33,158 bases of DNA from Clostridia bacterium (GTDB taxonomy: Bacteria > Bacillota > Clostridia > Christensenellales > Aristaeellaceae): positions 1 to 33,158 of the forward strand of contig JAFSNT010000243.1 in NCBI GenBank assembly GCA_017443295.1, written 5' to 3'. This document shows, piece by piece, positions 1-28,684 of the stretch. Positions within the stretch are counted from its first letter, which is position 1. The number at the start of each line of letters is the position of its first letter. Both the position numbers and the translations under genes were made by a program. The notes under the pieces are model-generated. The model was not told the DNA's origin and ran no database searches. It saw only the letters and a list, made by a program, of their open reading frames with translations.

Positions 1-118
1 GAGCCAGAAGCCATCAAAGTTTCGTAAACCCCAGCGCCGCAGGCGGCGCTTATTCGATATATTCTTACAAGCCGCTTCGCCAAGTGAGGGTCCAGGGAGA
101 TCATCTCCCTGGTCGGGG
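1..118. repeat. Partial copy of the composite palindromic repeat (family A) at the window edge
   Basis: The stretch matches the reverse complement of 12849-12978 with about four bases in five shared. It starts with GAGCCAGAAGCC, the outer edge of the 125-bp core seen at 12969-13093. It continues through a GC hairpin at 33-50 (AGCGCCGC/GGCGGCGCT) and a perfect palindrome at 92-112 (CCAGGGAGAT, one central base, ATCTCCCTGG). The window therefore begins at the boundary of a repeat core. This could be a contig break caused by the repeat, or simply where the window was cut. Confidence 0.75.
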
Positions 119-124
119 GACGAA

Positions 125-162
125 CCGCCGATGACCGCCGGTGGCGGGAATCTCATCGGCGG
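125..162 (-). repeat. 38-nt structured repeat, family B, copy 1
   Basis: Read on the minus strand this is a 10-bp outer stem (CCGCCGATGA with TCATCGGCGG), a 5-nt one-sided bulge, an inner stem CCGCC/GGCGG and a 3-nt loop. Copies at 19964-20001 and 28001-28038 have the same 10-5-5-3-5-10 geometry. Five outer-stem base pairs differ from copy 3, and all five are compensated. The flanks also match: GATC-type sequence before and a TTYGTCC-like sequence after. Confidence 0.7.
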
Positions 163-227
163 TGAGATCAGGCGAAAAGGAGCAATCTCCCCATGAAGGG
201 GAGTTGCGACTTTTGAGCCTGCGGAAC

Positions 228-19925: not shown

Positions 19926-19958
19926 ATAAAACACCCCTTGCGGTTTTCTCGGAAGGGG
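19926..19958 (-). terminator. Terminator-like hairpin after pyrE
   Basis: On the minus strand CCCCTT, a 13-nt loop and AAGGGG are followed by TGTTTTATAAAA. It lies beyond the structured repeat at 19964-20001. Confidence 0.5.
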
Positions 19959-19963
19959 ACGAG

Positions 19964-20001
19964 CATTCGATGATCGCCTGTGGTGGAAATATCATCGGGT
20001 G
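19964..20001 (-). repeat. 38-nt structured repeat, family B, copy 2
   Basis: It has the same 10-5-5-3-5-10 geometry as 125-162 and 28001-28038. The outer stem has eight of ten pairs (CACCCGATGA with TCATCGAATG), a TATTT bulge, and a degenerate inner stem CCACC-ACA-GGCGA. It lies 13 bp downstream of the pyrE stop on the pyrE coding strand. Confidence 0.6.
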
Positions 20002-20014
20002 CGAGTTCTCTCTC

Positions 20015-20650
20015 CTATTTCATCCAGCTTTCGTCGCTGGGATTATCCCGGAAGCGGAGCAGGCGAGAACAAGCCTCTTGTTCAATGTACCCCTCCTGGG
20101 CGGCCACTTCGACCAAAGTATCAAGATTGCACAGGCTGATATTGCGAACGCTGGCGGCGGCTAAACGGTCCAGGCCCTTTTTCATGCCGTAGGTGAAGAT
20201 GCTCACGATGCCCAGCACTTCCGCCCCGGCGTCCCGCAGGGCGTCCACCACTTCGATGACGCTGCCGCCGGTGGAAATCAGGTCTTCCACCACCACCACC
20301 TTCTGGCCTTTTTCCAGCTTGCCTTCGATTTGGTTGCCCCGGCCGTGATCCTTGGCCCCTGAGCGCACGTAGCCCATGGGCAGGCCCATTAAATGGCCGG
20401 TAATGGCGGCGTGGGCGATGCCCGCCGTGGACGTTCCCATGAGTACCTCCACATCGGGATAGTTTGCCTCGATCAGGCCCTTCAAGCCCTCCTCCACGTG
20501 GGTGCGCACTTCCGGCGCGGTCAGGGTCAAGCGATTGTCGCAGTAAATAGGGCTTTTGATGCCGCTGGCCCAGGTGAAAGGCTCCTGGGGCCGCAGGAAT
20601 ACGGCGCGGATGGACAAAAGATCGTGGGCGATGGTTTGGGCAGTGATCAT
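20015..20650 (-). CDS. pyrE: Orotate phosphoribosyltransferase
   Basis: The 211-residue enzyme joins orotate to PRPP to make OMP in pyrimidine synthesis. The PRPP motif [13 protein letters not shown] lies at 118-130. The catalytic loop [14 protein letters not shown] (98-111) and substrate-side [12 protein letters not shown] (29-40) are typical. ATG 20650 follows GAGGA. A TACAAT -10-like box lies about 25 bp upstream, but no good -35 was found. No other pyr gene is adjacent, unlike the common pyr operon. A composite repeat sits upstream and a structured repeat downstream. Confidence 0.95.
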
Positions 20651-26584: not shown

Positions 26585-27677
26585 TGCCGTCGCCCATGTC
26601 GGGATCCATTTCGGGAATATCGTCCCCATCCACGGCGGGCACGGTCATCTGGCTCATCTGCTGGCGAAGCAGGGCGTCGATCTCGTCCGCCACGTCGGGG
26701 TGATCCTTCAAATACTGCCTTGCGTTGTCCCGGCCCTGGGCGATGCGCTGGTCGTTATAGGAGAACCAGGCCCCGGACTTGACGATGATATCCTTGGCCA
26801 CGGCCATATCCAGCAGGCTGCCTTCCCGGCTGATGCCCTGGCCGTAGATCAGGTCGAATTCGCAGGAGCGGAAGGGCGGGGCCACCTTGTTTTTGACCAC
26901 CTTCACCTTGGTGCGGTTGCCGATGACCTCGCTGCCGTTCTTGAGCTGCTCGCCCCGCCGCACGTCGAGGCGCACGGAGGCGTAGAATTTCAGCGCCCGG
27001 CCGCCGGGGGTGGTTTCGGGGTTGCCGTACATCACGCCCACTTTTTCGCGGATCTGGTTGATGAACAGGGCGATGGCGTTGGTTTTCGCCACCACGCCGG
27101 TGAGCTTGCGCATGGCCTGGCTCATGAGACGGGCCTGGATGCCCACGAAAGAATCGCCCATTTCGCCGTCGATTTCGGCGCGCGGCACCAGGGCAGCCAC
27201 GGAGTCGATGACGACGATATCAATGGCCCCGCTGCGCAGCAGCGCTTCGGCGATTTCCAGGGCGTCCTCGCCGCAGTTGGGCTGGCTTATGTACAATTCG
27301 TCGATGTTCACGCCCAAATTCTTGGCGTAAGCGGGATCCAGCGCGTGTTCCGCGTCGATAAAGGCCGCCGCGCCGCCTTTTTTCTGCACCTGGGCCACCA
27401 CGTGCAGGGCCACCGTGGTTTTACCGGAGGATTCCGGCCCGAATACCTCGATGATGCGGCCCCGGGGAATGCCGCCCACACCCAGCGCCATGTCCAGATC
27501 AAGGCAGCCCGTGGGCACCACGTCCACCTGCATGGCGGTCTTTTCGCCTAACTTCATCACCGTGCCCTTGCCGAATTCCTTTTCAATGCTGGACAGGGTG
27601 GCTTCCAGGGCCTTCATTTTCTCCTGCTGGGTGTTGTCGAGCTTCAAATCCTTTTTCGCTGAATCCTTCTTAGCCAT
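26574..27677 (-). CDS. recA: Recombinase RecA
   Basis: The 367-residue protein has an N-terminal polymerisation helix, Walker [10 protein letters not shown] (80-88), catalytic [10 protein letters not shown], Walker [13 protein letters not shown], loop L1 with GEMGD and loop L2 [17 protein letters not shown]. It forms filaments on single-stranded DNA for strand exchange and triggers LexA cleavage. ATG 27677 follows GGGAGATAAAACC, and the MAKK start is usual; the longer frame to 27716 runs into the small-RNA promoter. No Clostridia-type LexA box was found upstream. pgsA upstream is the usual neighbour, but a toxin-antitoxin-like locus now sits between them. The stop overlaps the metal ATPase gene. 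Confidence 0.97.
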
Positions 27678-27709
27678 GGTTTTATCTCCCTTTTCATATT
27701 GTGCGGCTC

Positions 27710-27738
27710 TTGACATACCTGGGCTTTTTGCATATAAT
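27710..27738 (+). promoter_or_regulatory. Consensus promoter of the small RNA
   Basis: Perfect TTGACA (27710-27715), exactly 17 bp, then perfect TATAAT (27733-27738). It is the strongest promoter in the window and points away from recA. Confidence 0.9.
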
Positions 27739-27744
27739 AAAGAC

Positions 27745-27832
27745 AGGGAGTGATGGTCTCACGCGAAGCCCTCCGCCTGACGGCGGGAATTATCGCAAAG
27801 CCACCGCGTAGTGCGAATACGCGGCGGCTTTT
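27745..27832 (+). ncRNA. Predicted antitoxin small RNA of about 88 nt
   Basis: A perfect promoter and a terminator at 27800-27832 bracket a segment with no sensible frame or ribosome site. It has a short 5' hairpin (GTGA/TCAC), a CCGCC-TGAC-GGCGG hairpin (27773-27786), a 13-nt unpaired linker and the terminator. The linker contains AATTATCGCAA (27788-27798). This can pair for 11 bases (one G-U) with the toxin mRNA directly before its GAGG ribosome site (27952-27962). A second match, GTCTCACGCG (27756-27765), can pair with the toxin leader at 28075-28082 with one bulge. The 3' ends also overlap. The antitoxin role is inferred from this layout. Confidence 0.7.
27800..27832. terminator. Shared terminator of small RNA and toxin mRNA
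   Basis: GCC, one mismatch, CCGCGTA, a 7-nt loop, TACGCGG and GGC are followed by TTTT on the plus strand. On the minus strand the same stem is followed by only TTT, so it is stronger for the small RNA. Confidence 0.8.
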
Positions 27833-27840
27833 CTCATTGC

Positions 27841-27939
27841 TTACTTGTGTTTATTGCTTTTGAAGGTCTTCAAAAGCTTCAGCAAGAGGGTTATGGCGGT
27901 TAAGCAAATCATGATGATTTCATAAGCGCTCATATCCAT
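27841..27939 (-). CDS. Small hydrophobic toxin-like peptide (Hol_Tox/type I toxin family, putative)
   Basis: The 32-residue peptide MDMSAYEIIMICLTAITLL continues with a leucine stretch and ends in the basic tail KTFKSNKHK. A short N-terminus with SxYE, one membrane segment and a lysine-rich end is the pattern of holin-like (Hol_Tox) and other Firmicutes type I toxins, which insert in the membrane and lower its potential when overproduced. ATG 27939 is eight bases behind GAGG; ATG 27933 is an alternative, giving 30 residues. The open frame continues upstream to 28074, but that part crosses a structured repeat and is probably leader. The promoter is at 28126-28154, so the leader is about 180 nt and highly structured. 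It converges on the small RNA. Confidence 0.65.
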   Translation of the reverse strand: MDMSAYEIIMICLTAITLLLKLLKTFKSNKHK

Positions 27940-28000
27940 CCCCGCATCCTCAATCATCGCAAGTCCGCACTGCGGACATTGCTCGTTTCGGATGATCGCA

Positions 28001-28038
28001 CCTTTGACAATATTTCCGCCACTGGCGGTTGTCAAAGG
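28001..28038 (+). repeat. 38-nt structured repeat, family B, copy 3 (in the toxin leader)
   Basis: CCTTTGACAA pairs perfectly with TTGTCAAAGG around a TATTT bulge and the inner stem CCGCC-ACT-GGCGG. Relative to copy 1 five of ten outer pairs changed, all compensated. Flanks GATCGCA before and TTTGTCC after match the other copies. Confidence 0.7.
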
Positions 28039-28099
28039 TTTGTCCTGCCTTCTTTTGCAGTCCGGCAGGCGCAAGTCTCGCGTATTACTCCCTGTCTGT

Positions 28100-28124
28100 C
28101 ATCCGTTTACGCGGATGGCTTTTT
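28100..28124 (+). terminator. Terminator-like hairpin near the toxin transcription start
   Basis: CATCCG-TTTACG-CGGATG is followed by GC and TTTTT on the plus strand. It resembles the tail of the shared terminator (TACGCGG.(.)GGCTTTT...CATT). It would stop plus-strand readthrough from the small RNA before pgsA; on the minus strand it is the 5' end of the toxin mRNA. Confidence 0.55.
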
Positions 28125-28125
28125 C

Positions 28126-28154
28126 ATTATAAAGTATTTCCTGGGTTCAGTCAA
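28126..28154 (-). promoter_or_regulatory. Promoter of the toxin mRNA
   Basis: On the minus strand TTGACT (28154-28149), 17 bp, and perfect TATAAT (28131-28126). Transcription would start near 28119, about 180 nt before the toxin start codon. It begins nine bases after the pgsA stop. Confidence 0.8.
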
Positions 28155-28162
28155 TCGACAAA

Positions 28163-28684
28163 TCACATTCCCCCGCTTTTCAGCACGTTCCGGTATCCCC
28201 ACAAATACTTGGCCCCGCTCCACACGGTCATGACGGCCATGGCGATGGTGAGGATCAGGGTGACAATGTGGCCCTTGGGCAGCAGCATGCCCGCTAAGAT
28301 GCAGAAAAATTGCAGATTGGTTTTGATTTTCCCCAGCCACCCGGCGGCGATCACGGTGCCCTTGCCCACGGCCACCAGGCGCAGGCCGTCCACCATCAGC
28401 TCCCGCGCCGCCACGATACACACCGCCCAGGCGGGAATGATCCCGTCGGCACACAGGAAGATCATGGCGGTGAGGACCAGAATCTTGTCCGCCACCGGAT
28501 CGGCGAACTTGCCGAACGTGGTGATGATGTTCTGCTTCCGGGCGATGTAGCCGTCCAGAAAGTCGGTCAATGCCGCCAGAGCGAAAATGGTCGCCGAAAA
28601 AACCGGCTGCCCCAGCGCCCACAGCAGCAGGCACACGGGAATCAGCAGGATGCGCAGCAGCGTCAGCTTATTGGGCAGGTTCAT
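28163..28684 (-). CDS. pgsA: CDP-diacylglycerol-glycerol-3-phosphate 3-phosphatidyltransferase
   Basis: The 173-residue membrane enzyme makes phosphatidylglycerol phosphate, the precursor of phosphatidylglycerol and cardiolipin. The CDP-alcohol phosphotransferase motif is perfect: D44-G45, A48-R49, G58, D62 and D66. Five to six membrane helices are visible. ATG 28684 has GGAG ten bases upstream. It is the third gene of a murA, J-domain, pgsA cluster with gaps of 17 and 52 bp. pgsA before recA is the common order in Firmicutes. Confidence 0.95.
   Translation of the reverse strand: MNLPNKLTLLRILLIPVCLLLWALGQPVFSATIFALAALTDFLDGYIARKQNIITTFGKFADPVADKILVLTAMIFLCADGIIPAWAVCIVAARELMVDGLRLVAVGKGTVIAAGWLGKIKTNLQFFCILAGMLLPKGHIVTLILTIAMAVMTVWSGAKYLWGYRNVLKSGGM

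What the first reader, a model, noticed from the sequence alone, without database searches (positions are those of the whole stretch)
27710..28154. Candidate type I toxin-antitoxin locus between pgsA and recA with an antisense-type small RNA
Seen: two near-consensus promoters (TTGACA-N17-TATAAT on plus, TTGACT-N17-TATAAT on minus) face each other 390 bp apart. The minus transcript encodes a 30-32 residue hydrophobic peptide with an SxYE start and a Lys-rich end. The plus transcript (about 88 nt) is non-coding and ends at a stem shared by both RNAs. Plus-strand direct repeats AATTATCGCAA (27788) and AATCATCGCAA (27952) place an 11-base pairing exactly before the toxin ribosome site. In the small RNA this seed lies in the only unpaired linker. 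GTCTC(A)CGCG (27756 and 28075) gives a second contact. Known: convergent genes, a shared terminator and direct repeats that supply complementarity are the layout of the pAD1 par (Fst) locus. Inferred: this is an independent module of that type in a GC-rich clostridial lineage.
Basis: partly seen in the sequence, partly recalled or inferred. Interest (0 to 1): 0.85.

Follow-up and report, generated by a model that had tools for sequence, protein, structure and literature searches.

The report
Toxin–antitoxin cassette invaded by repeat
Between two housekeeping genes sits one copy of a family of small gene cassettes, each apparently encoding a tiny membrane toxin and the small RNA that keeps it silent; in this copy a dispersed repeat has landed on the toxin's start signal, and the cassettes nearly always face the same way as the gene that follows.

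Summary
Relatives show that this is one copy of a recurrent, unannotated cassette (35 loci found, 34 with both facing promoters). It has a ~30-codon hydrophobic peptide under purifying selection, a shared terminator stem and a ~90-nt RNA. In relatives a hairpin of that RNA carries YATCRCCTGCC, complementary to the toxin ribosome site GGCAGGTGAT. This is a type I toxin–antitoxin-like module. Its layout resembles par/Fst, but its peptide lacks PXXXG and grades only weakly towards Hol_Tox, so it is not filed as Fst.

The mRNA half of the 11-bp contact is repeat sequence. The family's contact is lost here on both RNAs. The new contact is somewhat better than chance (P 0.0015–0.011) and may be a replacement.

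Unexpectedly, the downstream gene lies on the toxin strand in 32 of 35 loci (21 of 24 flank groups, p = 2.8e-4; repeat control 14 of 35), so the cassettes may also influence neighbouring core genes. Transcription, pairing and toxicity are untested; cognate pairing is not better than swapped pairing.

The parts
28126..28154 (-). toxin mRNA promoter TTGACT-N17-TATAAT
   Evidence: -10 end lies 65-99 nt before the start codon in 33 of 35 loci, 192 nt in this copy and 187 in L031
28098..28119 (-). 5' end hairpin of the toxin mRNA GCCATCC/GGATGAC
   Evidence: a hairpin at the expected 5' end in 31 of 33 loci folded (the script picked a wrong start for the window, and L099 shows none)
28044..28069 (-). 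leader stem CCTGCC..GGCAGG that in relatives holds the toxin SD
   Evidence: 8 consensus pairs, 3 with double-sided compensatory changes
27942..28045 (-). dispersed structured repeat 'B' inserted between leader stem and toxin start (edges overlap host sequence by a few bases)
   Evidence: 122 bits with model R1; 14 of 31 consensus pairs with double-sided changes
27841..27933 (-). toxin-like peptide ORF, 30 aa plus stop
27797..27831 (.). shared (bidirectional) terminator stem
   Evidence: consensus stem; mean T count in 10 bases at the stem end: sRNA direction 5.0, mRNA direction 4.1 (33 loci)
27710..27738 (+). sRNA promoter TTGACA-N17-TATAAT
27745..27836 (+). antitoxin-like small RNA (ends inferred)
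   Evidence: promoter and terminator positions; conserved RNA structure in 32 sequences
27773..27786 (+). sRNA hairpin; in relatives it carries the anti-SD YATCRCCTGCC, here CCGCCTGACGGCGG
27788..27798 (+). sRNA linker segment AATTATCGCAA, candidate replacement contact
27952..27962 (-). complement of that segment in the toxin mRNA, inside repeat B

Best explanation
The locus is one copy of a multi-copy type I toxin-antitoxin-like cassette found only within this bacterial family in the samples searched, about 340 bp from promoter to promoter without the repeat. One strand makes a leader mRNA for a ~30-residue hydrophobic peptide whose ribosome site AGGTGAT is held in a leader stem. The other makes a ~90-nt RNA whose middle hairpin presents YATCRCCTGCC. 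That hairpin, a mimic of the 16S anti-SD (recalled), pairs with the toxin ribosome site and blocks translation, while the shared terminator stem supplies a second complementary region. Conservation of the parts is shown; transcription, pairing and toxicity are inferred. In the window copy a 104-nt dispersed repeat has replaced the ribosome site, the ancestral contact is gone from both RNAs, and an 11-bp contact between the sRNA linker and the repeat may have replaced it. This copy is therefore either rewired or decaying.
For: 34 of 35 loci with both promoters, 33 at fixed spacing; 13 of 14 loci brought in by peptide alone have the facing promoter. Coding constraint (28 of 35 loci). sRNA to ribosome-site complementarity: 83% standard pairs over 10 positions in 31 loci, against 29-55% in ten slid registers. 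Covarying sRNA hairpin and leader stem. Seven groups of loci share flanks between 2-4 genomes of different species. Insertion shown by uninterrupted relatives. L031, with the repeat upstream of an intact ribosome site, keeps the ancestral contact; the window does not. New 11-bp contact: none of 32 other sRNAs reaches 11 with this mRNA; shuffle P 0.011 over the mRNA, 0.0015 near the start codon.
Against: Cognate sRNA-mRNA pairs are not significantly better than swapped pairs (p 0.12; 0.11 and 0.19), so specificity is not shown. Nested dimer energies do not beat shuffled sRNAs (z from -1.1 to +2.1; window -1.0). Pfam, NCBIfam, PHROGs and PDB give no significant match to the core peptides. The orientation bias relative to neighbouring genes is not expected of a plain addiction module. 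No RNA data.
Confidence: 0.68

Rival explanations
1. An intra-operon regulatory cassette: a promoter, hairpin leader, upstream peptide ORF, leaky terminator and opposing antisense promoter that tune transcription of the downstream core gene (recA here; ispG, carA/carB, a pyrB/argF-like gene, a ttcA-like gene and rph elsewhere). The peptide is a leader or membrane sensor rather than a toxin.
For: Downstream gene on the toxin strand in 32 of 35 loci (21 of 24 flank groups, p 2.8e-4; 20 of 23 to 22 of 25 under other groupings, p 4.9e-4 to 1.6e-4) and upstream gene in 31 of 34. Control repeat B: 14 of 35 scorable copies. In 20 of 35 loci both flanking genes are on the toxin strand, with the upstream gene ending within 60 nt of the cassette and the downstream gene starting within 300 nt of the toxin ATG. 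mRNA-direction terminator tail slightly weaker (4.1 against 5.0 T of 10).
Against: The downstream genes named share no single pathway. The peptide is hydrophobic, basic-tailed and under purifying selection, and the sRNA matches its ribosome site, which fits toxin control. Orientation could instead reflect selection against polar insertions.
Confidence: 0.22
2. The window copy is a dead relic: the repeat destroyed the ribosome site and the sRNA drifted.
For: Ancestral contact lost on both sides (window duplex -15.3, equal to shuffled -15.3).
Against: Both promoters at or near consensus, ORF intact, sRNA hairpin kept (CCGCC/GGCGG), new 11-bp contact.
Confidence: 0.35
3. One reading: a par/Fst-type locus whose direct repeats 27788/27952 are the designed pairing site.
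For: Layout as in PMC7472228 (passages); the repeats exist.
Against: 27952 lies in the dispersed repeat; the 31 other loci compared share another contact; no PXXXG.
Confidence: 0.08

Closest known systems
par/Fst type I toxin-antitoxin (pAD1 par)
   Same: convergent promoters, bidirectional terminator, second complementary region at the toxin start, SD-sequestering leader stem, 5' end hairpin (par features from PMC7472228 passages)
   Different: peptide lacks PXXXG; the family's contact is an anti-SD hairpin of the sRNA; sRNA ~90 nt instead of ~40; multi-copy, between core genes where named
Hol_Tox (PF16935) / TxpA-BsrE type peptides
   Same: short SxYE/Q start, one hydrophobic stretch, Lys-rich end; bridge peptide L101 19.8 bits over the whole model
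   Different: core peptides do not reach the cut-off; invariant M8, C10, L16, L18 in the 20 peptides of A1
Clostridioides difficile CD2517.1-RCd8 type modules
   Same: convergent toxin and antisense RNA genes in Clostridia (PMC6563280 passages)
   Different: toxins of 50-53 aa for the first three modules, long complementary region and many in prophages there; here ~30 aa

Membership tests
Fst/Ldr (par) type I TA | convergent promoters | tested here: met
Fst/Ldr (par) type I TA | bidirectional intrinsic terminator shared by both RNAs | tested here: met
   sequence only:
Fst/Ldr (par) type I TA | second complementarity at the translation start | tested here: inconclusive
   met in relatives by another motif, without cognate preference; in the window only through the inserted repeat
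Fst/Ldr (par) type I TA | SD-sequestering 5' stem-loop | tested here: inconclusive
   present in relatives; in the window separated from the start codon by repeat B
Fst/Ldr (par) type I TA | toxin PXXXG motif | tested here: not met
   window peptide has neither P nor G; 0 of the 20 peptides of A1 contain P
Hol_Tox PF16935 | score over the curated cut-off 23.3 bits | tested here: not met
   window peptide no match; 1 of 20 members at E 0.17; best bridge 19.8 bits
type I toxin-antitoxin (general) | short hydrophobic peptide encoded opposite a small RNA gene | tested here: met
   (sequence only)
type I toxin-antitoxin (general) | peptide inhibits growth and the RNA prevents its translation | not testable with these tools
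   no expression data
TxpA/BsrG, BsrE/BsrH | sequence relationship of toxin and antitoxin RNA to the B. subtilis members | not tested
   only PF16935 was compared

The most novel reading that the evidence does not exclude
A class of self-regulated toxin cassettes that lives inside operons of core genes in a fixed orientation, so that operon transcription opposes the antitoxin RNA and toxin-promoter read-through feeds the downstream gene. In this copy a dispersed structured repeat has overwritten the toxin ribosome site and the antitoxin has evolved a new contact to the repeat.
Probability: 0.2. Interest if true: 0.78.

Novelty: new variant of a known kind. Interest (0 to 1): 0.58.

Why it matters
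Many well-studied antisense-controlled toxins sit on plasmids and prophages (PMC6563280 and PMC7472228 passages). A multi-copy family kept at shared sites between core genes such as argF-carB and rseP-ispG, with a near-strict orientation, makes a chromosomal role testable. The window copy is a natural experiment on what happens to an antisense RNA when a dispersed repeat overwrites its target.

Tried and rejected
Nested two-strand folding could not separate cognate from shuffled pairs and was not used as support. Cognate-versus-swap tests were not significant. Protein searches of plasmids and phages and a pattern scan of viral contigs were empty, so no link to mobile replicons was found; the pattern was one exact promoter signature. 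Rfam has nothing for the region. PADLOC was not searched. I rejected the 77-aa ORF with CPQCG through B as a coding part because B is dispersed and conserved as paired bases; a coding test on B was not run. The promoter-like TTGACA-N17-TATTGT inside B falls in its hairpin and was not counted. Whether B prefers toxin leaders was not settled. Literature: six searches. No listed title or abstract start described this family, but only three papers were opened, in passages, and only the held library was searched.

Dropped rows: L118 was left out of alignment A2, the window out of A3, and L112 (facing promoter at an unusual 109 nt) and L119 out of both, so 31 loci are in the pairing count. The coding test dropped L032, L119 and five loci under 40 bits. 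The four loci of 22-25 bits (L101, L102, L103, L107) are kept in the counts of 35; without them the downstream gene is on the toxin strand in 30 of 31. The flank groups were made by hand: L125 shares its operon with L042 and L046 but lies one gene further on, and L068 and L077 share one flank; regrouping gives 22 of 25 or 20 of 23. The control used 37 of the 55 B matches, 35 of them scorable downstream.

Full report
What is in the window. Rfam has no match for the window at the curated thresholds or for 27650-28200 at E up to 5. Pfam and NCBIfam do not recognise the 30-aa peptide.

The locus is composite. A search of 60 relatives with 27690-28170 gave two patterns (at most 10 candidates scored per genome, list cut). 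Part A (27709-27943 together with 28044-28134) occurs as a multi-copy locus in the genus. Part B (27942-28045) occurs separately and more often: 55 matches in this genome against 3 copies of the peptide. In the alignment of the window with 15 relatives, 14 have no insert between the leader stem and the start codon where the window has B; L031 has B at another place, upstream of the leader stem. B is therefore an insertion in the window copy.

The family. A profile of 20 peptides (A1) found matches in 10 of 29 genomes of the genus (21 copies), 10 of 150 sampled genomes of the family, 2 of 297 of the order (the window's own genome and one of the same family) and 1 of 291 of the class (own genome only). 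In the loci held by then this gave 35 distinct loci. All 35 have a promoter-like site upstream of the peptide (at most 2 mismatches). 34 of 35 have a facing promoter downstream, 33 of them 183-206 nt from the start codon. Twenty-one of the 35 had been brought in through the promoter or DNA similarity. The other 14 came from the peptide profile alone, and 13 of those have the facing promoter. The mRNA -10 to ATG distance is 65-99 nt in 33 loci; only the window (192) and L031 (187), the two with B, differ. The 10 named stretches with the promoter signature are Clostridiales/Clostridia genome bins, 8 with RUG names, which I recall as rumen bins.

Conservation. Among 28 of the 35 copies over 24 codons, pN/pS is 0.39 in the peptide frame and 0.89 and 1.49 in the other two; entropy is lowest at codon position 2. 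The sRNA has a conserved middle hairpin and the terminator stem: 16 pairs, 9 with double-sided changes (32 sequences). The mRNA leader stem has 8 pairs, 3 with double-sided changes (32 sequences). A hairpin stands at the expected 5' end of the mRNA in 31 of 33 loci folded.

The pairing. In the 31 loci present in both alignments, ten sRNA positions and ten ribosome-site positions form standard pairs in 83% of cells, against 29-55% in ten slid registers. Mean duplex energy with the ribosome site is -17.5 for cognate pairs, -17.1 for non-cognate pairs and -14.0 for shuffled sRNAs (33 loci). Cognate preference is not significant (permutation p 0.12; 0.11 and 0.19), so cross-talk between copies is possible. 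Dimer free energies that account for nested folding do not beat shuffled sRNAs. The complementarity is conserved; its use is inferred. That AGGTGAT matches the complement of the 16S 3' end, so that the sRNA hairpin mimics it, rests on recalled sequence.

What the insertion did. In the window the ribosome site is GCGGGGATGGATATG, made largely by the end of B. The window sRNA hairpin reads CCGCCTGACGGCGG, and its best duplex with the new site equals shuffles (-15.3 and -15.3). L031, where B lies upstream of an intact ribosome site, keeps both halves of the ancestral contact. None of 32 other sRNAs reaches 11 with the window mRNA (best 9). Shuffled window sRNAs reach it with P 0.011 over the mRNA and 0.0015 in the 50 nt around the start. 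The mRNA half TTGCGATGATT occurs in 4 of 28 aligned B copies, the window's among them, so any adaptation would be on the sRNA side. This is suggestive, not proof: the contact was picked before the test and the shuffles keep only base composition.

Site and orientation. In 26 of the 29 genomes of the genus pgsA and recA were both in the fetched stretch; only the window's has the cassette between them. Of the other three, two show 423 and 613 nt after pgsA without it and one ends at pgsA. The spacer is 26-54 nt in 9 genomes, and the closest relative with both genes (L134, pgsA 94%) has 175 nt without the cassette. Elsewhere copies share flanks between species: rseP-ispG (L034, L038, L045), argF-carB or argF-carA (L044, L097, L041 and, in another genus, L109), near a pyrB/argF-like gene (L042, L046, L125), a ttcA-like gene (L040, L043) and three further groups (names from matches of short pieces to NCBIfam models, below the whole-protein cut-offs). 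By codon-usage scoring the downstream gene is on the toxin strand in 32 of 35 loci and the upstream gene in 31 of 34. By flank groups, made by hand, it is 21 of 24 (p 2.8e-4). The same method on repeat B gives 14 of 35. In 20 of 35 loci both neighbours are on the toxin strand and close. This was not expected for an addiction module and is the reason for the operon-control rival.

Relation to known kinds. PMC7472228 (passages) lists convergent promoters, bidirectional terminator, direct repeats, SD-sequestering stem, 5' hairpin and PXXXG for par/Fst. The family shows much of the layout but not PXXXG, so it may work like par but is not filed as Fst. Hol_Tox is the nearest peptide family: 1 of 20 members at E 0.17, one bridge peptide at 19.8 bits against a cut-off of 23.3, and genomes G095 and G120 found by both searches, G095 at the same places. 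PMC6563280 and PMC6562991 were seen in passages.

Verdict. A conserved, so far unannotated type I toxin-antitoxin-like family; the window copy carries an inserted repeat at its ribosome site; function untested.

Noticed in passing
window 27942-28045 (-), 118-224 (+), 19957-20057 (+, weak): 104-nt dispersed repeat with a paired structure (14 of 31 pairs with double-sided changes), 55 matches in this genome (some partial), in 20 of 29 genomes of the genus and 9 of 60 sampled in the family, own genome included; no Rfam match for the window copy. Nature unknown; possibly a small mobile element.
   Followed up: partly
L051 1010-1113 and L202 880-986 (G000:C205, C257): A second small-peptide family (..FHIGKYTV..NRHSAK) behind a promoter, with a facing TTGACA/TATAAT site readable downstream on the other strand and repeat B at the same leader position in both copies. 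The L051 peptide has no Pfam match.
   Followed up: partly
L047 747-852 (G000:C100): Another short hydrophobic peptide (MTNVELFALLLAVASLALTIYFGMKR) directly after repeat B, with a facing TTGACA/TAAAAT site downstream. With the window, L051 and L202 this makes 4 of 48 near-full-length B hits of this genome lying before such peptides; enrichment not tested.
   Followed up: partly
pgsA-recA spacers L137-L140, L145, L148, L150, L151: 8 of 28 non-empty stretches after pgsA carry GAAC-N4-GTTC, an SOS-box-like site (motif recalled); 5 of these also have a GACAGGGAG..CCCTGTC-T type leader hairpin. The window spacer and L134 have no such box.
   Followed up: partly
window 27741-27754 and 28084-28097: Both RNAs begin with nearly the same motif (AGACAGGGAGT), a 14-nt inverted repeat, 93% complementary; in some relatives (L101, L102, L103) variants of the motif appear in both RNAs together. 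Read-through toxin mRNA could fold back on its own leader.
   Followed up: no
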